Below are positions 47,959 to 60,716 of a stretch of 64,000 bases of DNA, piece after piece. Within the stretch, counting starts at the first letter, position 1; each line of letters opens with the position of its first letter. Source of the stretch: Kosakonia radicincitans DSM 16656. Its GTDB lineage: Bacteria > Pseudomonadota > Gammaproteobacteria > Enterobacterales > Enterobacteriaceae. The stretch lies in assembly GCF_000280495.2 (NCBI RefSeq), contig NZ_CP018016.1, positions 5,022,001 to 5,086,000 on the forward strand. The letters are read 5' to 3'. Made by a program: the position numbers and the translations under genes. The notes under the pieces were generated by a model, which saw only the letters and a list, made by a program, of their open reading frames with translations, ran no database searches and was not told the DNA's origin.

Positions 47959-48894
47959 TCAGTGCGAAGAGATAAAGTCAGAAGCCGGATGCGGCGGCGG
48001 GACGGCGAAACTCTGCTGCATTCTCTGCACTTCTTGCGCAGGCGGCAGACCAAACAACCGTTTGAACTCGCGATTAAATTGTGACGGGCTTTCATACCCC
48101 ACCGCATAGCTGGCTGCGGCAGCCGTCATCTCCTGGCGAACCATCAACATTCGCGCCTGGTGCAGCCGCACTGATTTGACATACTGCATTGGTGGCATGT
48201 GCGTCATCGTTTTGAAATGGCTATGAAATGTGGGCACGCTCATCCCCGCCTCGTCTGCCAGTTGTCTCAGGCTCAGCGGTTGATGATACGCAGCATGAAT
48301 ATGCCGTAGCACCTTACAAATCCTGCCGAATTGCCCCTGCAGCGCCAGCGCGGAACGCATGGCATGCCCCTGCGCCCCGGTTAATACGCGAAAATAGAGC
48401 TCGCGCACCAGCGCTGGCCCAAGGACCGACGCCTCCAGCGGGGAGCTTAGCGCCTCCAGCAACCGCAATACCGATTTCCGCATCCCGCCGTCCATCGGGC
48501 TGGACATCATACTTTGCGGCGCAGCCGCTGCATGCGTGGCTCCCTGCTGCTCAATATGGAGTAACAACTCTGCCGCGACCTGAAAATCGAGATGCATATA
48601 GATAGCCAGCAACGGGCGTTCGGCAGAAGCCTCGGTTTCCATCACAAAAGGCACCGGAACCGAAACGGCCAGATAATGCTGTTCATCATAAAGGTAGAGC
48701 TGCTCGCCGAAATAGCCGCGTTTACTGCCCTGGCAGACAATGACAATGCCGGGGTCGTAGAGGACGGGCGTTCTGGCAAGCGGGCGATCGGATCGCAGAA
48801 TACGGATATCCGCGAGCGCCGTCAGATTGTAGCCCTCCTGCGGAGCCAGTTCTTTCAATAGCGCCACCATTTGCGGCTGGTCGGGGAAATACAT
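47959..48894 (-). CDS. AraC-family transcriptional regulator (AraC_N type)
   Basis: A 311-residue regulator with an N-terminal AraC_N cupin-like domain (LYDPGIVIVCQGSKRGYFGE and FRVLTGAQGHAMRSALALQ) and a C-terminal double HTH (LSLRQLADEAGMSVPTFHSH and GYESPSQFNREFKRLFGLPP). The frame opens at 48954; the ATG at 48894 (MYFPDQPQ) fits the family start. It is a paralogue of the partial regulator at 1-531 and, like it, is divergent from an SDR gene. The likely target is the SDR gene at 49004. Confidence 0.93.
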   Translation of the reverse strand: MYFPDQPQMVALLKELAPQEGYNLTALADIRILRSDRPLARTPVLYDPGIVIVCQGSKRGYFGEQLYLYDEQHYLAVSVPVPFVMETEASAERPLLAIYMHLDFQVAAELLLHIEQQGATHAAAAPQSMMSSPMDGGMRKSVLRLLEALSSPLEASVLGPALVRELYFRVLTGAQGHAMRSALALQGQFGRICKVLRHIHAAYHQPLSLRQLADEAGMSVPTFHSHFKTMTHMPPMQYVKSVRLHQARMLMVRQEMTAAAASYAVGYESPSQFNREFKRLFGLPPAQEVQRMQQSFAVPPPHPASDFISSH

Positions 48895-49003
48895 CGTCAC
48901 ACAGTTACTCAGAATTTTAGGCAATAAAAAGAGAATATATGGCCTAAAAAACATCCAGTACAGACAATATTATGCAGCTTCCATTTTTCATGGGAGTACG
49001 ACA
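48895..49003. promoter_or_regulatory. Divergent promoter region, AraC/SDR pair
   Basis: A 109-nt AT-rich gap between divergent genes. It must hold both promoters; no clear operator is seen. Confidence 0.45.
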
Positions 49004-49837
49004 ATGTCCGCAGAAAAAATTGTTTTTATTACCGGTGTCAGCAGCGGTTTTGGCCGTGCGCTGGCGCAGGAAGCGCTGGCCGCAGGCTATCGCGTGATCG
49101 GTACGGTGCGCAATACAGAGGCAAAACACGCGTTTGAGGCGCTGTCATCCGGCCGCGCTTACGGGCGCATCCTGGATATCACGGATTTCTCCGCGATCGA
49201 CAGTGTCATTGCCGAAGCGCAAACCAGCGTGGGGCCAATTGATGTGCTGGTGAATAACGCGGGTTACGGTCATGAAGGAGTGATGGAGGAGTCATCGCTG
49301 GACGCCCTGCGCCACCAGTTTGAGGTTAACGTGTTCGGCGCCGTCGCCATGATGAAAGCGGTACTTCCAGGCATGCGCCAACGGCGTCGCGGGCACATCA
49401 TCAACATCACCTCAATGGGGGGATTTATTACTATGCCGGGCATTACTTACTACTGCGGCAGCAAATTTGCGCTGGAGGGGATTTCCGACGCGCTGGGCAA
49501 AGAGGTGCAGCCGTTTGGCATTTTCGTTACCGCCGTCGCGCCCGGTTCGTTTCGTACTGAATGGGCGGGCCGTTCGATGATCCGTTCGCCCCGCTCGATT
49601 GCCGATTACGATGCGATTTTCGATCCTATTCGCAAAGCGCGCGAGGAGAAAAGCGGCAAGCAACTGGGCGATACAGCAAAAGCCGCCCGTGCGATGCTGG
49701 CCATTATGCAAAGCGCTACGCCGCCTGCCCACCTGCTGTTAGGTAGCGATGCGCTCACGCTGGTGCGGGAGAAACTGGCGACGCTGACAACAGAAATCAA
49801 TGCCTGGGAGAGCGTGACACGTTCCACCGACGGGTAA
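49004..49837 (+). CDS. SDR-family oxidoreductase
   Basis: A 277-residue classical short-chain dehydrogenase. Motifs are TGVSSGFGRALAQEA, NNAGYGHEG, the strand INITSMGG and the catalytic YYCGSKFALEG. The C-terminal 80 residues resemble the retinol/steroid dehydrogenase-like 'oxidoreductase' subgroup common next to AraC_N regulators. GGGAGTACGACA precedes the ATG. Substrate unknown. Confidence 0.92.
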   Translation: MSAEKIVFITGVSSGFGRALAQEALAAGYRVIGTVRNTEAKHAFEALSSGRAYGRILDITDFSAIDSVIAEAQTSVGPIDVLVNNAGYGHEGVMEESSLDALRHQFEVNVFGAVAMMKAVLPGMRQRRRGHIINITSMGGFITMPGITYYCGSKFALEGISDALGKEVQPFGIFVTAVAPGSFRTEWAGRSMIRSPRSIADYDAIFDPIRKAREEKSGKQLGDTAKAARAMLAIMQSATPPAHLLLGSDALTLVREKLATLTTEINAWESVTRSTDG

Positions 49838-49873: not shown

Positions 49874-51784
49874 TCAAAACCGGCTGACGCACTCCATCGC
49901 CACGCTTCGGAAGGCGGCGAAATTGGCGCAATCACAAAGCCTTGAAGCTGCGCGCTCGCGCAGGAAGGTGACAAAAATATCGTAGATCGCCATCGCCTCT
50001 TCATACTCGCTTTTACTGATCGCCAGCAGGAAGATGACATGCGCGATCTCCTCGCCCCACTGAATGCCTTTTGGTGCGAGCACGGTGTAGACAACGGTTT
50101 TTTTCGCCAGCAACCCCAGCGCATGCGGCAACGCGATGCCTTCGCCGAGCATGGTGCTGACAATCGCTTCACGCTCCACCACAGAATCCACAAACTCTGC
50201 GCCGACAAAACCTTCATCCTGAAGCTGATCGCAAAGGGTTTTAAACAGCGTCTGCTGATCCATCGCGCCGTCGATAATGCGGAAATGTGCGGCATCAAAA
50301 TACTTTTCCAGCATCCACGGGCGCGTTCTGTCCACCAGCACCAGTTTGCCAATCTGCTCCAGTTGGTAATCGGTGGGGAAAGGCGCGATGGTGACGATCG
50401 GTTTGTCTTTCTCGCTGATCCGCGCGGTGGAAATAACAAAATCTTCCGCAATACCATCGCACTGCTCGTAGTCGCGCAGCGTCACGGTGCGCGAGACAAC
50501 AATTTGCGGATATTTGCGCGCCAGCACCGCTTCAATCATCCGCACCATCGCATTTCCGGCATCGCACACCAGCAGCACGCGCGGCTGGCGCTGGTAGCCA
50601 ATGTTGTAGTGGCGCTCAAGCCCTACACCAATATGCAGCACCAGGAAGCCAATTTCGTTTTCGCTGATGACATACGGCGTATATTTGCCCCAACTGGATA
50701 CCGCCGCCAGCGTCATATCCCAGGCCATCGGATAATGCTGTTTGATGTTATCCAGCAACGGGTTAGGAATCATGATCTGGTAGCGCACGCGGGTGATCAT
50801 GGTTTTAATGTGCGTCAGTAAATCGGCGTGCAACTGATCGTCGTTTTGCAGGTTGTAGTTATAGTGCGTGTTGATATAGCCGAGAATGTAGTTCACCAGC
50901 GTTTCGTCGTCGTCCGCGCTAATCGCGCTCGGCGCAATCTCCTGCACGCGCCGCCCGGCAATATGCACCCGCAGCCAGTGCTCTTCCGACGCTGCCAGCG
51001 GTTTTCCCGCCAGTTGCTGTAGCGCGGCAGAAATGGCGCGCGCCGCATCGCGCACCTTCTCATCACCATCTTCGGCGGTAAATTCCGAGAGCGGATACCC
51101 TTCGCTGATACGCCGCACCGCCACTGCACAATAGAGGCGGATAAACAAATCGCCCTCATCAGTCAGGCGGATGTGATAACGGCTAAAGCAGTCATGCAGA
51201 ATGGCGGCCAGTGCTTCCGGCACGCCAGGATTGAGCGCCTCTTCGGTAATCAGCGGGTTGTGGGCGTTCTGCTGCGCCAGTTCAAACAGCAGATCCGTCA
51301 GACAGGCGCGCAGCGCCATCTCGCTGCCAAACAGCTTCATGCCGTGGCGCGGACGGGTTTCCAGCGTCAGGCGATAACGGGAAAACCACTCACGCACTTC
51401 GGTCATGTCATTTTGCAGCGTGGCGCGGCTGACAAACCACTCATCCGCCAGATCTTCCAGCTTCAGGGAAAAAGCCGAGGTCAGAAACCGCACCACCAGG
51501 TAGTGCACGCGTTCCGGCCCGCTGCGGGGAATGCGCAGCGCGCGCGGGCGGGTGGCCTGTAATGTCTGATAACGCGTTGCGTCATCGATCTTCAGTTGAT
51601 AACCGCTGCCGCGCGTCAAAATAAACTGTGCGCCGTGGTGCTCCAGCAGCGCATTTAAGGCGGTGATATCGGCCCGAACGGTACGCGTGGAGACCGACAG
51701 CCTTTGTGCCAGTTCATCCTGCGGCAGTGTCTCGTTTTGCAACATCATAAACAGCTGCGCTAAACGTTGGTTCGGGAATCGCAC
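49874..51784 (-). CDS. PRD-containing transcription regulator with EIIB and EIIA-like domains
   Basis: A 636-residue BglG/MtlR/LicR-type activator. In order it has two N-terminal HTH domains (LPQDELAQRLSVSTRTVRAD and LEDLADEWFVSRATLQND), PRD1 and PRD2 with conserved His residues, an EIIB-like domain (LLVCDAGNAMVRMI) and an EIIA-fructose/mannitol-like domain (GEGIALPHALGLL, with the phospho-His). Such proteins respond to PTS phosphorylation and activate a sugar operon. It starts at GTG 51784 with CCAGGAGACTGAC upstream. It is the last gene of the amino-sugar-acid operon, 14 nt after the lactonase, and is its likely regulator. Confidence 0.92.
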   Translation of the reverse strand: MRFPNQRLAQLFMMLQNETLPQDELAQRLSVSTRTVRADITALNALLEHHGAQFILTRGSGYQLKIDDATRYQTLQATRPRALRIPRSGPERVHYLVVRFLTSAFSLKLEDLADEWFVSRATLQNDMTEVREWFSRYRLTLETRPRHGMKLFGSEMALRACLTDLLFELAQQNAHNPLITEEALNPGVPEALAAILHDCFSRYHIRLTDEGDLFIRLYCAVAVRRISEGYPLSEFTAEDGDEKVRDAARAISAALQQLAGKPLAASEEHWLRVHIAGRRVQEIAPSAISADDDETLVNYILGYINTHYNYNLQNDDQLHADLLTHIKTMITRVRYQIMIPNPLLDNIKQHYPMAWDMTLAAVSSWGKYTPYVISENEIGFLVLHIGVGLERHYNIGYQRQPRVLLVCDAGNAMVRMIEAVLARKYPQIVVSRTVTLRDYEQCDGIAEDFVISTARISEKDKPIVTIAPFPTDYQLEQIGKLVLVDRTRPWMLEKYFDAAHFRIIDGAMDQQTLFKTLCDQLQDEGFVGAEFVDSVVEREAIVSTMLGEGIALPHALGLLAKKTVVYTVLAPKGIQWGEEIAHVIFLLAISKSEYEEAMAIYDIFVTFLRERAASRLCDCANFAAFRSVAMECVSRF

Positions 51785-51798
51785 GTCAGTCTCCTGGC

Positions 51799-52944
51799 TT
51801 AGTGAGAGGAAATGACCATCTGAGATGGGCTGCCCACCGGTGTGTAATCCGGCACAAAACTGAGCTTACCGTCCTTCGCAACGCGAAAACGGGTGATATT
51901 GTCGCTGCGTTGATTCATGACGTACAGCCAGCGCCCCTGTTTATCCAGCGTCAGCGAGCGCGGATAGTCGCCGCGCGTCCAGATATCATCCTGATGTGCC
52001 AGCGTGCCATCCGGCTGTACGCTAAAGTGCGCCACGCTGTTATGCAGACGGTTAGCCACATACAGTTGTTTTCCATCCCGGCTGAGTACCAGACCAGCGG
52101 CAAAGCTGGTGCCTTTGTACGTTGCTGGCAGTGCAGAGGTAGTTTTGCCCTCTTTCAGCGTTCCGGTTGCGCTGTCCAGCGTGTAATACGTCAACGTTGA
52201 AGCCTCTTCATTGATCAACCACAGCCCATCGCCTTTTGGCGTAAAGACAAAGTGACGCGGCCCGGCGCCTTTTGAAGACGCGTTGATAAAAGGTGGTTCG
52301 TTAGGCGTTAACTTGCCACTCTGCGCCTCCAGGCGGTACTGATAAATGCGATCCAGGCCCAGATCGGTTGAGAAGACAAATTTCCCTTGCGGATCGGCGG
52401 CAATCATATGCGCATGCGGGCCGTTATGATCGCTGATGGCAAAGCTGCCCCCCACGGCTGCTGCGGGTTTGGCGGCTCCCGGTTCGCCCTGATCCTGGTG
52501 GCTGTCCACCGCTTCGCCGAGGCTACCGTCAGCTTTTACCGGCAATACGGCAATCGAACCACTGACATAATTCGCCACCAGCAGATAGCGCCCATCCGGC
52601 GTCAGTGCCAGATAAACCGGCCCGGCACCGCCGGATGACACCTGGTTCAGTTCCTGCAATGCACCGTTATCGTCAATACGCAACGCCTGCACCACGCCCT
52701 TTTCCACTTCGCTGGCGACATACAACGTTTTGCCATCCTGCGAAACGGTAAGCTGCGCCGCATTCGGCAGCGTGCTGACCAGCGTTTTGTTTCCCAGCGC
52801 GCCGGATTGCGGGTCAACGGTAAAGCGGTAAACGCCTTCGCCGTTGGGGTTGTAGGTTCCCACCCAGGCGTACTGCGTCTGGGCTATGGCGCTGGTCGCC
52901 AGCAGGGAGAGTGAAGCAGCAAGCAGATGACGGGCAGTGTGCAT
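51799..52944 (-). CDS. Exported beta-propeller lactonase (6-phosphogluconolactonase-like)
   Basis: A 381-residue seven-bladed propeller of the lactonase (PF10282) family. It begins with a clear Sec signal peptide (MHTARHLLAASLSLLATSAI, then AQ), so it acts in the periplasm, unlike cytosolic Pgl. The mature part has the YAWVGTYNPNGEGVYRF, GAGPRHFVFTPKG and RSLTLDKQGRWLYVMNQ blocks. AAGGAGCCACC fixes the start at 52944; the open frame continues upstream. In this operon it may open an aldonolactone outside the cell membrane so that the acid can be taken up. That role is inferred. Confidence 0.87.
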   Translation of the reverse strand: MHTARHLLAASLSLLATSAIAQTQYAWVGTYNPNGEGVYRFTVDPQSGALGNKTLVSTLPNAAQLTVSQDGKTLYVASEVEKGVVQALRIDDNGALQELNQVSSGGAGPVYLALTPDGRYLLVANYVSGSIAVLPVKADGSLGEAVDSHQDQGEPGAAKPAAAVGGSFAISDHNGPHAHMIAADPQGKFVFSTDLGLDRIYQYRLEAQSGKLTPNEPPFINASSKGAGPRHFVFTPKGDGLWLINEEASTLTYYTLDSATGTLKEGKTTSALPATYKGTSFAAGLVLSRDGKQLYVANRLHNSVAHFSVQPDGTLAHQDDIWTRGDYPRSLTLDKQGRWLYVMNQRSDNITRFRVAKDGKLSFVPDYTPVGSPSQMVISSH

Positions 52945-52969
52945 GGTGGCTCCTTTATGGTGTGCGTTT

Positions 52970-52992
52970 CCCTCCCACAGGTTGCGGGAGGG
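52970..52992 (-). terminator. Hairpin between aldolase and lactonase genes
   Basis: CCCTCCC pairs with GGGAGGG around a 9-nt loop in the 56-nt gap. With no T-run it may act as a processing or partial termination site that sets lactonase and regulator levels apart from the upstream genes. Confidence 0.5.
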
Positions 52993-53000
52993 CAAAATGT

Positions 53001-53741
53001 TTACTTCACTAACGCTTTGGTCATTGCCAGTAACTGGCGTACATCAGCCGGACGGGTATCACCGCTCGCTTTATCGATAATCGAGCTGTAGATATGCGGG
53101 ATAATTTTGCTGACGCCCGCTTCCAGCGCGATGTGCAGGATTTCGCTGTAGTTCTCCAGATCGATACCGCCGGTCGGTTCCAGCCAGAAGTCATGGCGCG
53201 CACAGGCATCGGCAACCGCCTGAAATTCATCACGGCACTTCAGCCCGCCCATCGGGAAATATTTAATCGAGCTACCGCCCATATCCTTCAGCAGGGCAAT
53301 GGCGGTTTCCACCGGCACAATACCGTCGGCCGTCTGGCTGCTGAGCGGCCCGGTAGAGATTTTCACCAATCCTGGCGTGCCGGTCGGCGAGACCAGACCG
53401 TTAACCACTGTTTCATTCTGCCCAAGCAGCGCGCGGCTGGTTGCCACGCCGGTAAACACCTGGTTGACGTGCTGCGGCTGTACGTCGCGGGAGATGGCGC
53501 TGACCATCGCCGACTGGTTCGGATCGCCCGCGCCAAGGCCGACAGAGAGCGCATTATCGATACGCGCTGCGTAGTCGCGCATATCCGCCACTGCCGACGC
53601 TACGTCCGGGTAATTTTTGGACAGCACGCCGACCAGCACATGACCTTCAGCCGCTTCATAGATGGCGCTGGCATTCTCTTTGTTTCCCGCCAGCACATTC
53701 AGGCAAACGCGATCGCGGTAAAAGTTCGGGGTCAGTTTCAT
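53001..53741 (-). CDS. KDGP aldolase family protein (DgaF-like)
   Basis: A 246-residue aldolase of the family that includes Salmonella DgaF (2-dehydro-3-deoxy-6-phosphogluconate aldolase of D-glucosaminate breakdown). It would yield pyruvate and glyceraldehyde 3-phosphate. The Schiff-base Lys is probably in SSIKYFPMGGLK; the LEPTGGIDLENY block follows. Its ATG overlaps the stop of the DgaE-like gene by 4 nt. The family pairing with DgaE-like lyases is established; the exact substrate here is not. Confidence 0.88.
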   Translation of the reverse strand: MKLTPNFYRDRVCLNVLAGNKENASAIYEAAEGHVLVGVLSKNYPDVASAVADMRDYAARIDNALSVGLGAGDPNQSAMVSAISRDVQPQHVNQVFTGVATSRALLGQNETVVNGLVSPTGTPGLVKISTGPLSSQTADGIVPVETAIALLKDMGGSSIKYFPMGGLKCRDEFQAVADACARHDFWLEPTGGIDLENYSEILHIALEAGVSKIIPHIYSSIIDKASGDTRPADVRQLLAMTKALVK

Positions 53742-54853
53742 GCGTGTTGCTCCTTCAATTCTTCGGCGATGCGGCGATAAACAATCGCCAGTTGCTCAGC
53801 GCTCACGCTGCGCACATCGGCTTCGATAATGCCTTCATTGGCTTTGTAGCCACGGAAATAGATGGCGTATTCACCCTGTTTCAGCGCGCTGACCAGTTCG
53901 CCGGTGGCGATGCCGGTTACCGCCTCATCAAACTTGATTTCGCTGCGGGCAATGTCGCGCCCTGCGCTGTCCCATACCACGCATGCGCTCACGCCTTGCA
54001 GCGTATTGAGCTGGTCGATAAACGGCGTCATCTTGGCGACCATCTCCGCCCCGCTCTCTTTGCGGGCGCTCAGATAGTGTTCGATGGCGCAAGTCAGGCC
54101 AAGAATGCCCTCTTTGCCGACTTTCATGGCGCGGCCAATGCCCGCCGTCTGGCGTTTCACCCACTCAACGTACTGGGTTTTGCCGATCACCAGCCCGCTG
54201 GTTGGCCCTTCGATGGCCTTCGCGCCGCTGTAAATCACCAAATCGGCCCCGGCGCGGTAATAGCATTGCAGATCCTCTTCCGCTGCGGCATCGACAATCA
54301 ACGGCAGGTTATGCTTACGCGCCACCACCACCGCCTGCTCCACGCTGAGCATACTTTTTTGTACGCAGTGGTGTGATTTGATGTAGAGGATCGCGGCCGT
54401 GCGCGGCGAGATTGCCGCCGCCAGTTGATCGGCAGAGCATTCGTTGGCATAACCCGCTTCCACCACTTTCCCGCCGCCGAGCGCCACCATCGTGCCAACC
54501 GGTGCGCCGAAGTTCACGTTGTGACCGCGCGGCAGCACGATTTCGTTGTTCTCCATCACCGTGCTGTGCAGATTCTCCAGCAGCCAGTCGTTGTCGCGCA
54601 CCAGCACCGCAGCAACGGATTGTGCAATCCCCGCTGAAGCGCAGGAGACAACGGTCGCCGCTTCAACGTCCAGCAGCTTCGCAATGTATTCGCCGGTTTT
54701 GTTCACCAGATCTTTCATTTCGAAGTAGTGATTCATGCCGCCAAGCACGGCTTCTACGACTTCCGGGCGCGGGGTGGAAACGCCCAGCGCAGTCATCCGA
54801 CCGGAGGCGTTAATCACCTGTTTTAAATTGTACTTTTCATAAATCGAAGGCAT
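53738..54853 (-). CDS. DgaE-like PLP-dependent ammonia-lyase
   Basis: A 371-residue PLP enzyme related to SelA. It resembles DgaE, the D-glucosaminate-6-phosphate ammonia-lyase, which eliminates ammonia to give the 2-keto-3-deoxy acid. The PLP lysine is in VIYSGAKAIEGPTSG and the IVDAAAEEDL segment holds the cofactor Asp. A GTG at 54862 lies inside the ribosome site, so the ATG at 54853 is preferred. It overlaps the amidohydrolase gene end by 17 nt and the aldolase start by 4 nt. Confidence 0.88.
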   Translation of the reverse strand: MPSIYEKYNLKQVINASGRMTALGVSTPRPEVVEAVLGGMNHYFEMKDLVNKTGEYIAKLLDVEAATVVSCASAGIAQSVAAVLVRDNDWLLENLHSTVMENNEIVLPRGHNVNFGAPVGTMVALGGGKVVEAGYANECSADQLAAAISPRTAAILYIKSHHCVQKSMLSVEQAVVVARKHNLPLIVDAAAEEDLQCYYRAGADLVIYSGAKAIEGPTSGLVIGKTQYVEWVKRQTAGIGRAMKVGKEGILGLTCAIEHYLSARKESGAEMVAKMTPFIDQLNTLQGVSACVVWDSAGRDIARSEIKFDEAVTGIATGELVSALKQGEYAIYFRGYKANEGIIEADVRSVSAEQLAIVYRRIAEELKEQHA

Positions 54854-55970
54854 GTTCTGCACTCCCTTGTTCGGTCAGATAGCCTTTGCCCGCGCGAATG
54901 GCGGCCAGCGGCGTGAGTAACTGTTCGGCCTGCAGGCTGTCGTTTTCCGCATCGGTGAACAGTACCGACTGGCGACGCAGGTCAAAAATAGTCAGATCGG
55001 CGTCGAAGCCGACGGCAAGGCGCCCTTTATGCTTCAGACGCAGGCCAGCGGCGGCGTGGTCAGTCACGCAGGCAATCACCTGCGGCAGCGACAGGCCAAT
55101 GGCGAGGAATTTGGACATCACATTTGCCAGCGATCGTACCGGGCCGTCGATCCGGTTGCGGCAGTAGATATCGGAGCTGATGGTCTGCGGCAGAATGCCG
55201 AGGCTGATGGCCTGTCTGGCCACTGCAAAGCTGAAGCTGGCGCTGCCGTGCCCGACGTCAAGACGCACGCCGCGCGCAATGGCGCGCGCCACGGAAGCGC
55301 GTAATTCGCCACCCGGTGCCAGAATGCGGTTCGGTTTGCCGTTATAGCAGTGGGTAATGATGTCGCCGGAGGTCAGCAACTCCGCGATTTCATCGAGGTT
55401 CGGCGGGTTGTTGCCGATGTGTACCATCAACGGCAAATCGCCGTTGGCTTTCTGGATCGCCTTCGCGCGTTCCAGCGGCGTGATGCCGTTTTCGCCGACC
55501 ACGCTGCTGCTCATGCGCGCTTTCAGGCCGACGATAAAATCCGGGTGGCGTTTCACCGCGTCATGTACCGCGTTCGCGTCGATATTAGCCATGTTAGCCA
55601 GCTCGTTCTGGGCAATCAGCCCGACGCGGGAGATATTCAGCAGCGCATACACTTCGGTCGCCGCCTCGCGGGTAATGGCATAAAAATCATCGACATCATC
55701 AGCACCGGTACTGCCTGCATCAATCACCGTCGTCACGCCGGTGTTGATGCCGACGCTGTCCGGTTCATCATGGTAAATCGGCGAATTCGGGTAGCAGTGC
55801 ACGTGGGAATCAATCCACCCGGCGCTGACATAGTGTTCGCCGTGCAGATCGAGCGTTTTAACCGCCGGGCCGTTTATCTCGCCCAGCGCGGCGATTTTCC
55901 CTGCCTTGATGGCGATATCCGTCAGCGTATCGTCAACCAGACGCGCCCGGCGCAGGAGTAAATCAAACAT
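54837..55970 (-). CDS. Amidohydrolase/deacetylase family metallohydrolase
   Basis: A 377-residue amidohydrolase. Metal ligands are visible as HVHCYPN near residue 56, a likely carboxylated Lys in IVGLKARMS, MVHIGNN, ITHCYNG, and the catalytic Asp of the SSDIYCRN segment. The closest known relatives deacetylate N-acetyl compounds, and this type is a constant member of the SFCGS/DUF4310-4312 gene set. In the pathway it would free the amino group before the DgaE-like step. Its start follows GGAGATTCGC. Confidence 0.88.
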   Translation of the reverse strand: MFDLLLRRARLVDDTLTDIAIKAGKIAALGEINGPAVKTLDLHGEHYVSAGWIDSHVHCYPNSPIYHDEPDSVGINTGVTTVIDAGSTGADDVDDFYAITREAATEVYALLNISRVGLIAQNELANMANIDANAVHDAVKRHPDFIVGLKARMSSSVVGENGITPLERAKAIQKANGDLPLMVHIGNNPPNLDEIAELLTSGDIITHCYNGKPNRILAPGGELRASVARAIARGVRLDVGHGSASFSFAVARQAISLGILPQTISSDIYCRNRIDGPVRSLANVMSKFLAIGLSLPQVIACVTDHAAAGLRLKHKGRLAVGFDADLTIFDLRRQSVLFTDAENDSLQAEQLLTPLAAIRAGKGYLTEQGSAEHAFDL

Positions 55971-56012
55971 GCGAATCTCCAGTAATAACGGGCGCCGCAG
56001 CGCCCGTAGGGT

Positions 56013-56654
56013 TCAGAGGGCGACCGGGAAGATGGAGCCCAGCAGCATAGCGCCGAGGATCGCGCCGCCCGTAATCGGTTTCTGCCAGAGGTAGAACAGC
56101 AAAGCACCAACCAGCGAACCAATACCAATAGGAATGGAAGCGGTCATCGCGCTGAGGATAATCAGCGGCCCAAGGAAGCGGCCGGATGCGTTACCCGCGC
56201 CCATCATCACATCTGCGCCGTAGGTGGAATCGCTCTGGTTGATGGTGAACTTACGCGCCAGGATGATCAGGTAACCAATGGCCAGGCCAAGTACCAGGCC
56301 GGTTGCCAGCGAGGCGACAAAGTTTTCCACCGGGAAGAGGATCCCCGCGCCCAGTAACAGCGCCGGAACACCGAGGCCGACACCGGTCTGGATTGCGCCG
56401 CCGATATCAAGGATACCGACCAGCGAACCTTCGATAATGCGGGCGAACAGGAAGCTGGCGCCAAACGCAGCGACCGCGCCGTATACGCCGGTGTCCATGC
56501 CGGAACGCAGCATCGAGACAAACGCCACTTCGTTAAACGCGCCGATGCCGTACAGGTAGTACATATGTGTCCCGGCGAATACGCCGGAAGAGAGCAGGCC
56601 AACAAAGATCGGGAACGACCAGTCGGCGTACCAAAACCCTTTATTCTGTTCCAT
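56013..56654 (-). CDS. DUF4310 family membrane protein
   Basis: A 213-residue protein with about six membrane helices, rich in Gly and Ala (SFPIFVGLLSSGVFAGTHMY, then LGVPALLLGAGILFP and GSLVGALLFYLW). It belongs to DUF4310, first defined in the Enterococcus faecalis EF_0833 neighbourhood, whose function is unknown. It lies 9 nt after the DUF4311 gene with an AAGGAAGCGAA site. It is probably one membrane part of an uncharacterised transporter. Confidence 0.88.
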   Translation of the reverse strand: MEQNKGFWYADWSFPIFVGLLSSGVFAGTHMYYLYGIGAFNEVAFVSMLRSGMDTGVYGAVAAFGASFLFARIIEGSLVGILDIGGAIQTGVGLGVPALLLGAGILFPVENFVASLATGLVLGLAIGYLIILARKFTINQSDSTYGADVMMGAGNASGRFLGPLIILSAMTASIPIGIGSLVGALLFYLWQKPITGGAILGAMLLGSIFPVAL

Positions 56655-56663
56655 TTCGCTTCC

Positions 56664-57440
56664 TTATTTGCCGCTGAGCGAGTTGTGGATGAACTCCAGC
56701 CAGTTCGGCGCGCTCAGGTGGAAAGACTCGATCATTTTCAGATCGAAGCCGCGGAAGAACGCGCTCAGCACAAACAGCGCGACAATGGCCGTCATCATCA
56801 CTTTGGTGACGCGATTCCAGCCGCTCTCTTCCACACCTTTACCAATCAGAATGCCCAGTACCAGGCCCGGTACGGCGTTGCCCATAATCAGCTGCGCCGC
56901 GCCGCCAAAGACGGTCGCCCAGAAACCCGATTTTTTGCCTGCGTCGATGGCTGCCAGCCAGAAGATCACCGGCATGACGGTGTTCACCAGCAGGTTGGCC
57001 GCCGGAACCAGCACTTTAACGGCGGTGACCTGCAAGGCCGCCGGAACGGAGGACGCCGTCAGGTTAAGGAAGGTGACGACCACCATGCCAATCAGGCCGC
57101 AGGCAATCGCCATCTTTTTCGGATCGTGCAGGGTTTCGCCGACGTTACGGTTTTTCACCATCAACGCCGCCGCGCCCCAGTTCGGAATGATGCGGTGGTC
57201 AACGTCCTGGGTAAAAGAACCCGCCGCAACGGACGAGGCCCAGGCGTTAAAGAAGAAGCCTAAGCCGAATGAGAAATGCGATGCGGGATCGCCTTCGCAG
57301 GAGTTCAGTTCGCCCAGTGTACGAAATGCGCCCATCCCTTGAGTGGTCGGCGCATGGAACATGCGTGCAGCCCCCGCGCCAACACCGACGCCAACCAGGC
57401 CGCCGATGATGAGCGATTTTATTAGTATGATTAAGAACAT
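56664..57440 (-). CDS. DUF4311 family membrane protein
   Basis: A 258-residue polytopic protein with about six helices. It begins MFLIILIKSLIIGGLVGVGV and has a conserved loop ELNSCEGDPASHFSFGLGFF between helices, where the Cys, Asp, His and Ser are candidates for substrate contact. It belongs to DUF4311 (EF_0832 type). The frame opens at 57476; the ATG at 57440 follows GAGGG. It is the likely partner of DUF4310. Confidence 0.88.
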   Translation of the reverse strand: MFLIILIKSLIIGGLVGVGVGAGAARMFHAPTTQGMGAFRTLGELNSCEGDPASHFSFGLGFFFNAWASSVAAGSFTQDVDHRIIPNWGAAALMVKNRNVGETLHDPKKMAIACGLIGMVVVTFLNLTASSVPAALQVTAVKVLVPAANLLVNTVMPVIFWLAAIDAGKKSGFWATVFGGAAQLIMGNAVPGLVLGILIGKGVEESGWNRVTKVMMTAIVALFVLSAFFRGFDLKMIESFHLSAPNWLEFIHNSLSGK

Positions 57441-57491
57441 CAGTCTGCCCTCTTCTACCCAGCGGAGGTGATTCACCGGGTATGCGTTGAG

Positions 57492-57788
57492 TTATTTCGT
57501 GACGAAATCCACTTTATTGAGATTGATGGCGGTCACGTTGACGGTGACGTCCAGCTCCACGCTGTACGTCCGTCTTTCCCGACGCAGAAAGAGAAATAAA
57601 AACGCCTCTTTCCGTATCGTTTCCTGCGCATGAACAACCTGCACATCCTGTGGCTCGATACGCAGTAAAATCTGCGGCGACGCTTTCATCACCGCGGCCT
57701 GAACCTGGTTCAGCGCATCCGCGAAGGCGCGCGCTTTCGCCTCGCCTTTTCCCTTAACCCTGACCGTGGTGGTGAACTGTTCTTTCAT
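57492..57788 (-). CDS. DUF4312 family protein
   Basis: A small soluble protein of 98 residues with an alpha/beta layout (FTTTVRVKGKGEAKARAFADAL, then LLRIEPQDVQVVHAQET and a beta-rich end). It belongs to DUF4312 (EF_0831 type), function unknown. The ATG at 57788 lies 2 nt after the SFCGS gene stop, so it is coupled. It may be a soluble part of the transporter. Confidence 0.87.
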   Translation of the reverse strand: MKEQFTTTVRVKGKGEAKARAFADALNQVQAAVMKASPQILLRIEPQDVQVVHAQETIRKEAFLFLFLRRERRTYSVELDVTVNVTAINLNKVDFVTK

Positions 57789-57790
57789 GG

Positions 57791-58153
57791 TTATGCGCCG
57801 TATTTTTTCTGCCACGCCTGCACCAGGCGCTCGCCTAATTCTTCTTTGTCCATAAAACCAAAGCCGAGAACATTGCAGCCCTCATTAATGGCGGTAACGC
57901 CCTCTTCCACGGAGCGCATACCATATTTGGCTTTATAGCCGTGTTTGTTCTGCGCGGTGATGGCACCCGCGCCGCCACTGCCGCAAAACGAAATACCGAA
58001 GGTGGCGTTTTCTGATTTCATCACGTCACCCAGTTTCATATCCGCCGCGACACCCGGCACCACCACGGCGCGGCCGCCCGCTTTTTCAACGCCAGCTGCG
58101 ACTTTCTGGCCTTTGCCAAGACGATCGCCAATCACTACGGTAATTTGTTCCAT
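57791..58153 (-). CDS. SFCGS family glycine-rich protein
   Basis: A 120-residue soluble protein named for its motif, here GISFCGSGGAGAITAQNKHG. The fold looks like a small alpha/beta domain (MEQITVVIGDRLGKGQKVAA start) similar in size to PTS EIIB. The single motif Cys could be a phospho-acceptor or ligand contact, which is speculation. GAGGAGCAAAAA fixes the ATG at 58153 inside a longer open frame. It belongs to the EF_0830/AHA_3911 family, found with DUF4310-4312. Confidence 0.88.
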   Translation of the reverse strand: MEQITVVIGDRLGKGQKVAAGVEKAGGRAVVVPGVAADMKLGDVMKSENATFGISFCGSGGAGAITAQNKHGYKAKYGMRSVEEGVTAINEGCNVLGFGFMDKEELGERLVQAWQKKYGA

Positions 58154-58163
58154 TTTTTGCTCC

Positions 58164-58484
58164 TCAGAGGTTTTCTTTTGCCACTTCGAAGTGCACCGAC
58201 AGCAGCCAGGCTTCTTCTTCCGGAAGATTGCCAAACGCTGCCACCACTTCACGGGCCAGGTTCATTGATTCAGGCGAGATTTCATCAAACAGGCTGGCAT
58301 CCACTTCCGGCAGCGGTTCGCCGGTCACCGACCGGTGCGCCATCGCGCGAACATGGGAGGTCAGCATCTGCTGCTGTACCGCATTCGGCGTAATGCCGTG
58401 ATTGCTCAGCAGCGCATAGACCTGCGTCAACATGCGCCCGGCAAGGGAGGCTGTTTGCTCCGCCCGATCTTGGGCATCGTTCAT
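58164..58484 (-). CDS. Small PRD-domain protein (EF_0829/AHA_3910 type)
   Basis: A 106-residue protein made of one PRD-like helical bundle (NHGITPNAVQQQMLTSHVRA and EEEAWLLSVHFEVAKEN, with conserved His residues). No DNA-binding domain is fused to it. Free PRD modules of this kind accompany the SFCGS gene set and may be PTS-phosphorylated modulators; E. coli yhfY in the yhf cluster is a comparable case. GGAG lies 6 nt before the ATG at 58484. It is the first gene of the operon. Confidence 0.83.
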   Translation of the reverse strand: MNDAQDRAEQTASLAGRMLTQVYALLSNHGITPNAVQQQMLTSHVRAMAHRSVTGEPLPEVDASLFDEISPESMNLAREVVAAFGNLPEEEAWLLSVHFEVAKENL

Positions 58485-58570
58485 TACCGCTCCGTTATTC
58501 ACTCGTCGTACCCCATTCATCTCGTTGAGATAAAACTAACGTTGCGGGTTACGAGTTTGTAGCGAGGAGT

Positions 58571-58752: not shown

Positions 58753-59646
58753 TTATTGCTGATCCGCCTTCAGTTCACGCAGAAGATGATCGGTGAAAGA
58801 GGCGACCAGTGGTTGCAGCGGACGGCCAGGCAAACGCAGCAGATGCATCGGTCTTGGCGGCGGCAGCCACTCTGGCAGCACTCTGCACAGCCGACCGGCG
58901 TCAATGTCCCGTTGCAGCGTGATAAAAGCATGCTGCACAATCCCCAGCCCGCTGAGCGCCGCCTGGCGCAACGCCTCACCGGAGTCGACCATCAGCCGGG
59001 GCGCGATCGCAATCTCCTGCGTGCCGGATGGCCCTTCCAGTTGCCAGCGATGATCCGAGCGCCACTGGCTGAAGCTGACGCAGTGATGGTGCTTTAGCTC
59101 GTCCGGCGAACCGGGCACACCGTGGCGAGCCAGATAGTCCGGCGAGGCTGCAAGTAACATGCGATACGGCGGAAGGGGAATGGCAACGCTACCGTCATCG
59201 TTAATGGCACCGATCCGAATCGCCAACTGAAAGCGCTCTTCAATTAGCGAGACTTTACGGTCGCTGAGCACCATCTCCGCATTCACGCCCGGATAATGCT
59301 GCAAAAAACGCGACAGGATCGGCGTCAGCACCCGATTCCCCCAGGCAACCGGCGCGCTGATGCGCAGCAACCCGGAGACATTTTCATACAACTCGCTTGC
59401 CAGCCCATCCGCGTCACGCACCGTGGCAAGAATTTGCAGCCCATACTGGTAGAAACGCTGGCCCGCATCCGTTAACCCCTGGCGCCGCGTGGTGCGATGC
59501 AGCAACTGACAGCCCGTTCGTAGCTCCAGCTCGCGCACGTGTTTGCCCACCATCGCGGGCGTGATCCCCAGCGTTTCTGCCGCCGCCGTAAAGCTGCCGC
59601 GGGTCACCGTCGTGACAAACGATTCAACGCATTTCAAATAATCCAT
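58753..59646 (-). CDS. LysR-family transcriptional regulator
   Basis: A 297-residue LysR protein: HTH MDYLKCVESFVTTVTRGSFT-type start and a C-terminal effector domain. The frame opens at 59661, but MDYLKCV is the family start. It is divergent from the quinone reductase-like gene at 59754, the usual regulator/target layout. It belongs to the DsdC/YafC-like clade that often controls a nearby oxidoreductase. Confidence 0.92.
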   Translation of the reverse strand: MDYLKCVESFVTTVTRGSFTAAAETLGITPAMVGKHVRELELRTGCQLLHRTTRRQGLTDAGQRFYQYGLQILATVRDADGLASELYENVSGLLRISAPVAWGNRVLTPILSRFLQHYPGVNAEMVLSDRKVSLIEERFQLAIRIGAINDDGSVAIPLPPYRMLLAASPDYLARHGVPGSPDELKHHHCVSFSQWRSDHRWQLEGPSGTQEIAIAPRLMVDSGEALRQAALSGLGIVQHAFITLQRDIDAGRLCRVLPEWLPPPRPMHLLRLPGRPLQPLVASFTDHLLRELKADQQ

Positions 59647-59753
59647 TTTTCGCCATTCCAAATTTTTAGTATCAAATGAAGATAATAAACCCGCATTTAT
59701 CCTCGTATAGCGGCGAGAAATAATAATGTGGTTATCATCTGCGGGATTTTTTC

Positions 59754-60716
59754 ATGATGCAATCGCTGGTTTTTGATCAATTTGGTTCCCCCGAAGTGCT
59801 GTGGTTGCGCACCAGCCCTGCGCCGGAACCGGGCGAAGGCGAACTGTTGGTGGAGGTTTCCGCCGCCGGGCTGAACTTTGCCGATATCTATCGTCGCCAG
59901 GGGCGTTATCCGCTGGCGGGAACGGCGCCGTGGGTTGCCGGTTACGAAGGCGCGGGGCGCGTGCTCAATGTCGGCGGCGGCGTGGAAGGCTGGCAGGTGG
60001 GCGATCGCGTCGGCTTTGCCGATGTTCCGCTGGCGCATGCCAGCCATATTCTGGTGCCGCAGGATCATGCTATTCGCCTGAGTGACTGGATTTCGGAAGC
60101 GGAAGCCGCATCGATATTGTTACAGGGCTTAACGGCGGATTATCTGTTGCATGACATCTTACTTGTTGAACCGGGCATGCATGTTGCGGTGCTGGCGGCA
60201 GCGGGCGGTGTTGGCAATCTGCTGACGCAAATGCTGGTGGCGCGCGGTGTGCATGTTTTCGCTGTCGCCTCCAGTAAAAGCAAACAGGCCGCCTGCCTGA
60301 ACAATGGTGCCGAGGTCGCGACCGATTATTACGGCTGGTCAGAACAGGTACGCGCCTGGCATTCATCAGGCTGCGATATCGTTTTTGATTCGGTGGGCAG
60401 CACGCTGCTGGAAAGTCTGCAGAGCCTGAAAGATGGCGGCCGGGTGGTGCTCTTTGGTATGTCTGGTGGCAAGATCCCGGCCTTTGATCCAACCGGATTG
60501 CTACTGAAATCCGCCGGCGTTATCGGCGCCGATCTCTGGACGTACCTTACCTCGCAACAAGAAAGACAGCGCCGCGCAGATAGGCTGTTTGCGCTATTGA
60601 AAGCCGGGGATATCACGTTACCCACGGTGACATCATTTCCGCTGTCCCGCGGTAAAGAGGCGCATAGCCTGCTGGAGAACCGGTTGTTTAGCGGCAAGGT
60701 AATGTTGATTCCGTAA
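59754..60716 (+). CDS. Zinc-free quinone oxidoreductase (MDR family)
   Basis: A 320-residue medium-chain reductase of the quinone oxidoreductase type: N-terminal GroES-like fold (GLNFADIYRRQGRYPLAG), a Rossmann domain with AAAGGVGNLLTQMLV, no zinc-binding cysteines. It probably reduces quinones or enones with NADPH. The start at tandem ATG codons 59754/59757 has a poor ribosome site. It is divergent from a LysR regulator that likely controls it. Confidence 0.9.
   Translation: MMQSLVFDQFGSPEVLWLRTSPAPEPGEGELLVEVSAAGLNFADIYRRQGRYPLAGTAPWVAGYEGAGRVLNVGGGVEGWQVGDRVGFADVPLAHASHILVPQDHAIRLSDWISEAEAASILLQGLTADYLLHDILLVEPGMHVAVLAAAGGVGNLLTQMLVARGVHVFAVASSKSKQAACLNNGAEVATDYYGWSEQVRAWHSSGCDIVFDSVGSTLLESLQSLKDGGRVVLFGMSGGKIPAFDPTGLLLKSAGVIGADLWTYLTSQQERQRRADRLFALLKAGDITLPTVTSFPLSRGKEAHSLLENRLFSGKVMLIP

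What the first reader, a model, noticed from the sequence alone, without database searches (positions are those of the whole stretch)
49874..58484. Ten-gene operon with an uncharacterised four-part transporter and an amino-sugar-acid pathway
Ten minus-strand genes with gaps of 2-57 nt or overlaps combine a free PRD protein, SFCGS protein, DUF4312, DUF4311, DUF4310, an amidohydrolase, a DgaE-like ammonia-lyase, a DgaF-like aldolase, an exported lactonase and a PRD/EIIB/EIIA regulator. The families DUF4310-4312 and SFCGS have no assigned function, but their fixed company suggests that two membrane proteins and two small soluble ones form a transporter, perhaps phospho-dependent as the PRD/EII regulator hints. 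Chemistry suggests lactone opening, uptake, N-deacetylation, ammonia elimination and aldol cleavage, for example of an N-acetylglucosaminate-type acid. The substrate is inference.
Basis: partly seen in the sequence, partly recalled or inferred. Interest (0 to 1): 0.85.

Follow-up and report, generated by a model that had tools for sequence, protein, structure and literature searches.

The report
Amino-sugar-acid operon with unusual transporter
This is a conserved gene set that probably lets bacteria take up and eat an acid form of an amino sugar, using a transporter of a kind nobody has characterised and that seems to be tied to the cell's sugar-phosphorylating system.

Summary
Ten minus-strand genes (49874-58520) are as described. 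Nine recur across Bacillota and Proteobacteria (all nine in 64 of 84 loci); the exported lactonase was found in 1 of 84. NCBIfam already lists seven as families of unknown function.
New here:
[quoted passage not shown]).
(2) A kinase is linked in 2 of 55 cassettes without MupG, against 15 of 17 with it. Two sister Bartonella plasmids add an HPr-Enzyme I gene. Both favour PTS-coupled uptake.
(3) In three genomes the transporter genes stand apart and the enzymes lie elsewhere.
(4) SFCGS has a predicted RpiB fold with an invariant Cys; DUF4312 looks dodecin-like.
(5) The free PRD protein is fused to the regulator in one locus.
(6) PRD and SFCGS resemble E. coli YhfY and YhfU.
The membrane proteins match no known fold. 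A link to LPMO was tested and not supported. Transport and substrate are inference.

The parts
58164..58520 (-). free PRD-domain protein (TIGR03582); the start may be as late as 58484
   Evidence: 141.1 bits, cut-off 69.35; both PRD histidines invariant in 77 of 77 rows, the window and 76 loci; fused to the regulator in L054
57791..58153 (-). SFCGS protein (TIGR03577/PF14272), predicted RpiB/LacAB fold; proposed Cys phospho-carrier of the transporter; the ORF extends to 58252
57492..57788 (-). DUF4312 (TIGR03578), predicted dodecin-like fold; the ORF extends to 57815
56664..57440 (-). DUF4311 membrane protein (TIGR03580), proposed permease subunit; the ORF extends to 57476
   Evidence: 514.1 bits; hydropathy
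56013..56654 (-). DUF4310 membrane protein (TIGR03579), proposed permease subunit
   Evidence: 395.1 bits; hydropathy
54837..55970 (-). amidohydrolase/deacetylase (TIGR03583, EF_0837 family); proposed N-deacylase
   Evidence: 566.6 bits; relatives 8wzy and 2ics; H56, H58, K150, H184, H207, D267 invariant in 77 rows
53738..54853 (-). DgaE-family PLP ammonia-lyase (TIGR01437); the ORF extends to 54862
   Evidence: 604.9 bits; [quoted passage not shown]
53001..53741 (-). DgaF-like 2-dehydro-3-deoxy-phosphogluconate aldolase
   Evidence: 388.3 bits, cut-off 300; 3m0z
51799..52944 (-). beta-propeller lactonase with an N-terminal signal-like stretch (read by eye), lineage-specific; the ORF extends to 52995
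   Evidence: PF10282 330.2 bits; seed matched in 1 of 84 loci
49874..51784 (-). HTH-Mga-PRD-EIIB-EIIA regulator
   Evidence: PRD His in 72 of 72, EIIB-type Cys in 64 of 72, EIIA His in 17 of 72 regulator rows

Best explanation
The operon takes up and degrades a 2-amino-2-deoxy aldonic acid, most likely in N-acetylated form (for example N-acetyl-D-glucosaminate). Uptake is by a new type of permease: DUF4311 and DUF4310 form the membrane channel, SFCGS (an RpiB-fold protein with one invariant Cys) and DUF4312 (dodecin-like) are its soluble parts, and uptake is coupled to phosphorylation through the PTS (PEP, Enzyme I, HPr). The amidohydrolase then removes the acyl group, the DgaE-family lyase eliminates ammonia to give KDPG, and the DgaF-like aldolase splits it to pyruvate and glyceraldehyde-3-phosphate. 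In this lineage an exported lactonase opens the lactone first. The PRD/EII regulator, with the free PRD protein as a detached extra PRD, reads the PTS phosphorylation state. Shown by sequence: conserved company, lyase residues, an HPr-EI gene in two sister plasmids. Predicted: the folds. Inferred: transport, phosphoryl coupling, acyl group, exact sugar acid.
For: Lyase: His162, His163 and the phosphate cluster Arg301/332/346 of the Salmonella enzyme (named in passages of PMC9529869) and its PLP lysine (Lys213 in the alignment; the passage prints Lys-217) align with identical residues in the window protein. The three Arg, His163 and the Lys hold in 76 of 76 lyases, His162 in 75 of 76. Aldolase over the DgaF cut-off. 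A KDG-kinase-like gene is linked in 15 of 17 complete loci with MupG but 2 of 55 without, Fisher p 1.5e-11, not corrected for kinship; 12 incomplete loci dropped. An HPr-EI fusion lies directly downstream in the Bartonella HY406 plasmid, and a ptsP gene of the same length in HY761. Regulator-PRD-SFCGS-4312-4311-4310 stands without enzymes in L053 and L056, and in L054 with PRD fused to the regulator. In these 3 of 3 genomes the amidohydrolase-lyase-aldolase genes lie elsewhere between MupG and kinase genes; one (G657) also has lyase-aldolase next to mannose-type EIIC/EIID genes. The Salmonella lyase is likewise fed by a PTS, DgaABCD (PMC9529869 passages).
Against: No biochemical data. DUF4311/DUF4310 show no similarity to mannose-type EIIC or EIID, and their model is poor and matches no solved fold. 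No recognised EIIA or EIIB is common to all cassettes: the EIIA His of the regulator is in 17 of 72 rows only. The two Bartonella plasmids share identical proteins, so they are one event, and HPr-EI could serve the PRD regulator alone. A kinase elsewhere in the genome was not excluded. The Arg triad is equally conserved in the MupG loci (17 of 17) and is also present in the less similar 8t7j chain, so it marks the wider family and does not separate the modes. The lyase is below the DgaE model cut-off.
Confidence: 0.55

Rival explanations
1. DUF4310/4311 are an ion-driven (non-PTS) permease. The acid enters unphosphorylated and a kinase encoded elsewhere phosphorylates it or KDG. The PTS link is only regulatory, through the PRD regulator and the free PRD.
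For: The characterised Ong route takes N-acetylglucosaminate up by an SSS transporter and phosphorylates KDG afterwards (PMC9537276 passages). No PTS permease homology was found (mannose type only). PRD domains are known as regulatory (recalled), and PRD is fused to the regulator in L054.
Against: The lyase keeps the arginine cluster modelled to bind substrate phosphate. 53 of 55 complete non-MupG cassettes have no linked kinase of the type sought. SFCGS and DUF4312 stay with the membrane genes even where the enzymes are not linked.
Confidence: 0.3
2. SFCGS is a true sugar-phosphate isomerase of the RpiB/LacAB family and a pathway enzyme, not part of the transporter.
Against: His99 and the C-terminal part of RpiB that carries phosphate-site arginines (roles recalled) have no counterpart, and a profile search of solved chains found nothing at E up to 1. 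The proposed route needs no isomerase. SFCGS travels with the permease genes where the enzymes are not linked. The YhfU family, also next to a membrane protein gene, keeps the Cys loop but not the Asp.
Confidence: 0.12
3. The route is of this type but the substrate is not an N-acetyl amino-sugar acid: another N-acyl or O-acyl derivative, or glucosaminate carried on a glycoside, as the MupG variants suggest.
For: The amidohydrolase family has no settled substrate in what I saw; PDB relatives are labelled dihydroorotase or adenine deaminase. That a relative is an ester hydrolase is recalled only. 18 of 84 loci match MupG, 17 of these also the EIIC, which in L035 is of the lactose/cellobiose type.
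Against: The lyase and aldolase chemistry points to a 2-amino aldonate core. An acyl hydrolase just before the lyase most simply makes the free amine.
Confidence: 0.35

Closest known systems
Salmonella dga operon (DgaABCD mannose-type PTS, DgaE, DgaF), as described in passages of PMC9529869; the original paper was seen only as a reference entry
   Same: DgaE-family lyase with the same catalytic and phosphate-site residues; DgaF-class aldolase; role in amino-sugar-acid use
   Different: mannose-type EII proteins replaced by DUF4310/4311/4312/SFCGS; an added amidohydrolase; a PRD/EII regulator
EF_0829-EF_0839 / AHA_3910-3917 families (NCBIfam TIGR03577-TIGR03583), function unassigned
   Same: this is that cassette; seven window proteins pass those models' cut-offs
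   Different: the window adds an exported lactonase; the E. faecalis record adds EIIC, an EIIB-sized protein, MupG and a sugar kinase
E. coli K-12 yhf operon (yhfS to yhfZ), annotated as putative or uncharacterised
   Same: PRD protein YhfY, Cys-loop protein YhfU and a large membrane protein YhfT encoded together with PLP and hydrolase enzymes
   Different: different enzymes; no DUF4312 among the annotated genes; YhfT has no detectable profile similarity to DUF4310/4311
Ong pathway of Pseudoalteromonas (PMC9537276, passages read)
   Same: deacetylation, deamination and KDG-6-phosphate formation from N-acetylglucosaminate
   Different: SSS transporter, a fold-type III PLP deaminase, phosphorylation only at KDG
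RpiB/LacAB isomerases
   Same: predicted fold and Cys loop of SFCGS
   Different: His99 and the C-terminal arm missing in SFCGS

Membership tests
[quoted passage not shown]
   380.6 bits, cut-off 600; it passes the wider TIGR01437 model, 604.9 against 385.3
[quoted passage not shown]
   all identical in the window; Arg226 is Lys in the window
DgaF KDPG aldolase | score over the NF047796 cut-off | tested here: met
   388.3 bits, cut-off 300
PTS permease | homology to a known EIIC/EIID family | tested here: inconclusive
   no signal by hhalign, tested against mannose-type EIIC and EIID only; no fold match for a weak model
PTS permease | PEP/EI/HPr-dependent phosphorylation of the substrate | not testable with these tools
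   only indirect: linked HPr-EI in two sister plasmids, lyase phosphate site
PTS permease | conserved phospho-accepting His and Cys carriers | tested here: inconclusive
   free PRD His in 77 of 77, SFCGS Cys in 44 of 44 rows; no recognised EIIA/EIIB common to all cassettes
RpiB/LacAB isomerase | RpiB fold | tested here: met
RpiB/LacAB isomerase | full catalytic set, recalled as Asp9, Cys66, His99 and C-terminal Arg | tested here: not met
   Cys and Asp aligned; His99 and the C-terminal arm absent
Dodecin | beta-alpha-beta-beta fold and family sequence | tested here: inconclusive
YhfTU-type system | homologous PRD protein, small Cys-loop protein and membrane protein encoded together | tested here: inconclusive
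   PRD/YhfY P 1.6e-7 (only 3 YhfY rows; both are PRD domains); SFCGS/YhfU P 1.9e-4, probability 48%; YhfT no signal

The most novel reading that the evidence does not exclude
DUF4310-4312 with SFCGS is a previously unrecognised superfamily of PTS permease in which an RpiB-fold protein, not a classical EIIB, carries phosphate on its invariant Cys (perhaps received from the free PRD protein or the regulator's EIIA) and hands it to the sugar acid crossing DUF4311/DUF4310. E. coli K-12 YhfU-YhfT would be a distant branch of the same superfamily.
Probability: 0.25. Interest if true: 0.88.

Novelty: new variant of a known kind. Interest (0 to 1): 0.62.

Why it matters
Four protein families of unknown function get a concrete, testable role, and one of them a predicted fold with a candidate reactive residue. 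They are widespread: a DUF4311 match in 96 of 198 sampled genomes of this family and at least 499 encoding places in a one-genome-per-species collection. If the coupling is right, the PTS has a permease type that homology searches miss. The possible kinship with YhfT/YhfU would open an unassigned operon of E. coli K-12 to the same tests.

Tried and rejected
Weak secondary DUF4311 hits in relatives looked at first like a link to other transporters. The two ORFs I could read (L040, L042) were a DjlA-like protein (name recalled), so I dropped the lead; L041 gave no ORF and E. coli's own weak control hit was not checked.

DUF4311 and DUF4310 as paralogues of each other, or as halves of YhfT: suggested by a MAFFT misalignment, not supported by hhalign. 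In window-shuffle tests 45 of 300 shuffles reached the D4311/D4310 score, 135 of 300 D4311/YhfT, and 5 of 300 D4310/YhfT, against 7 of 300 for SFCGS/YhfU and 10 of 300 for PRD/YhfY; I treat all of these as weak.

LPMO-made N-acetylglucosaminate as the general substrate: the window's genome has an LPMO, but of 198 family genomes (same draw size and handles) 22 of 37 LPMO carriers have a DUF4311 match and only 22 of 96 with a match have an LPMO. In a subset with listed sizes, 24 genomes of 3 Mb or more, LPMO is in 8 of 19 with and 4 of 5 without the cassette. Not supported. Chitin as the E. faecalis source stays an untested idea.

The free PRD as an EIIA substitute: its two His are invariant, but the fusion to the regulator in L054, and a PRD gene that overlaps the regulator or starts within 40 nt of it in 46 loci, favour a regulatory role.

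Enzyme-free cassettes as proof of other substrates: rejected, because 3 of 3 such genomes have the enzymes elsewhere. L077 was not tested; its contig ends.

DUF4312 as a sequence relative of dodecins: hhalign gave P 0.029 over 30 columns. SFCGS profile against solved chains: nothing at E up to 1. Promoter and terminator scan of the operon: one promoter-like site against 4.5 expected, 16 terminator-like against 10, not informative.

Papers (open PMC library only): DUF4310, DUF4311 and DUF4312 occur in none, and the SFCGS hits were unrelated. EF locus tags gave seven papers, of which passages of two were read: PMC7701990 suggests EF0839 may belong to amino-sugar metabolism and reports a possible fitness effect, and PMC2912369 lists an EF0839/EF2975 promoter active in urine. 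PMC7396535 passages call duplicated E. faecalis genes dgaE and dgaF. PMC11653859 passages could not confirm a GlcNAc1A route in Aeromonas. AHA/TIGR tags gave only two unrelated papers; cog3964 and related names one dihydroorotase paper, listing only. E. coli genomes hold no close copy of 53001-58520 at megablast sensitivity.
Full report
Observation. Seven of them pass NCBIfam models of unknown function named after Enterococcus faecalis EF_0829 to EF_0839 and Aeromonas AHA_3910 to AHA_3917, so the genes' association is not new to curators. In the open PMC library searched, no paper uses the names DUF4310, DUF4311 or DUF4312, and the SFCGS hits were unrelated. One paper suggests in passing that EF0839 may belong to amino-sugar metabolism (PMC7701990, passages).

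Spread. In 198 sampled genomes of the window's family, 96 have a DUF4311 match; one of these (G567) is only a short weak hit and one (G488) is broken. In 369 sampled genomes of the class only the window's own matched. With four plasmid records this gives 84 loci, from Enterococcus, Lactobacillus relatives, Bacillus, Chromobacterium, Providencia, Klebsiella, Aeromonas, Bartonella and others. SFCGS-4312-4311-4310 are adjacent in that order in 78 of 84, and 64 of 84 hold all nine core genes; of the 67 loci with at least 4 kb before and 7 kb after DUF4311, 56 do. The lactonase seed matched in 1 of 84, the Klebsiella record L038.

Enzymes. [quoted passage not shown] Passages of PMC9529869, on the Salmonella enzyme, name His162, His163 and, from manual docking, an Arg301/332/346 cluster near the substrate phosphate. 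The window has the same residues, and in 76 lyases of more than 340 residues from the loci the three Arg, His163 and the PLP Lys are invariant and His162 is in 75. The carboxylate-site Arg226 is Lys in 60 of 76 and in the window. A less similar solved protein, 8t7j, also has Arg at the three places, so the cluster marks the wider family. The lyase fails the DgaE equivalog cut-off. The aldolase passes the DgaF cut-off and matches 3m0z. The amidohydrolase matches 8wzy and E. faecalis 2ics with HxH, Lys, His, His, Asp invariant in 77 rows. Deacylation is the simplest role but is inference.

Why phosphorylating uptake. In 72 loci with both lyase and aldolase, a KDG-kinase-like gene is linked in 15 of 17 with MupG but 2 of 55 without (p 1.5e-11, not corrected for kinship, 12 incomplete loci dropped). 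The kinase call rests on L035, whose protein scores best against KDG-kinase-containing models but below their cut-offs. Of the 18 loci with MupG, 17 also match the EIIC, in L035 of the lactose/cellobiose type, so there a glycoside with an unphosphorylated aglycone would need the kinase. The other cassettes would not if uptake itself phosphorylates. The Bartonella HY406 plasmid ends the cassette with an HPr-Enzyme I fusion (511.4 bits, cut-off 341.7, and 75.4, cut-off 47.9); HY761 has a ptsP of the same length, not scanned, and shares identical proteins, so the two count as one event. Against this, HPr-EI may act only on the regulator, kinases elsewhere were not excluded, and the Arg cluster is also kept in the MupG loci.

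Modules. In L053 and L056 the unit regulator-PRD-SFCGS-4312-4311-4310 stands alone; L054 is the same with PRD fused to the regulator. In all three genomes the amidohydrolase-lyase-aldolase genes lie elsewhere between MupG and kinase genes, and one of them also has a lyase-aldolase pair beside mannose-type EIIC/EIID genes. This separates a transporter module from an enzyme module and shows the lyase-aldolase pair combined with a classical PTS as well.

Regulation. The regulator's two PRD histidines are invariant in 72 rows, the EIIB-type Cys is in 64, the EIIA His in 17, all of the latter from Proteobacteria. The free PRD protein keeps both His in 77 of 77 rows.

Relation to yhf. The PRD protein resembles YhfY (P 1.6e-7) and SFCGS resembles YhfU (P 1.9e-4, probability 48%) by hhalign. 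DUF2620 and SFCGS models hit each other's members weakly. In Cetobacterium the order is YhfZ-PRD-DUF2620-YhfT. This is a lead, not a proof.

Source of the substrate. The own genome has one LPMO and two PQQ membrane dehydrogenases over the cut-off, and only one EIIC and one EIID of the mannose type. Across the family, LPMO and cassette do not go together, so LPMO products are not supported as the general source. Periplasmic oxidation of an amino sugar followed by the exported lactonase is a possible source here, by inference only.

Verdict. An ordinary-looking catabolic operon whose transporter is the unusual part.

Noticed in passing
L036 6051-10062 and L146 13409-17420: Bartonella HY406 and HY761 plasmids carry the cassette with a linked ptsP gene (an HPr-Enzyme I fusion in HY406), beside type VI secretion genes.
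   Followed up: partly
L035 13548-16283 and 19253-20263: In 18 of 84 loci, largely Enterococcus and Lactococcus, MupG and usually an EIIC and a KDG-kinase-like gene are added to the cassette: possibly a route for a phosphorylated glycoside of the same sugar acid.
   Followed up: partly
L035 18497-19253: The DgaF gene of this E. faecalis record matches as two separate ORFs (163 and 84 aa) and no gene is listed there.
   Followed up: no
L043 (G488 C1 4582193-4582808): DUF4311 is broken into pieces with stop codons in this relative.
   Followed up: no
L004 4936-12345: The E. coli K-12 yhf operon (yhfS to yhfZ) has a similar set of parts to this cassette and no assigned function in the record.
   Followed up: partly
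window 47959-49837 and 58753-60716: The flanks (by eye an AraC-type and an SDR gene; a LysR-type and a quinone-oxidoreductase-type gene) differ from the Klebsiella flanks in L038, so the cassette sits at different sites.
   Followed up: no
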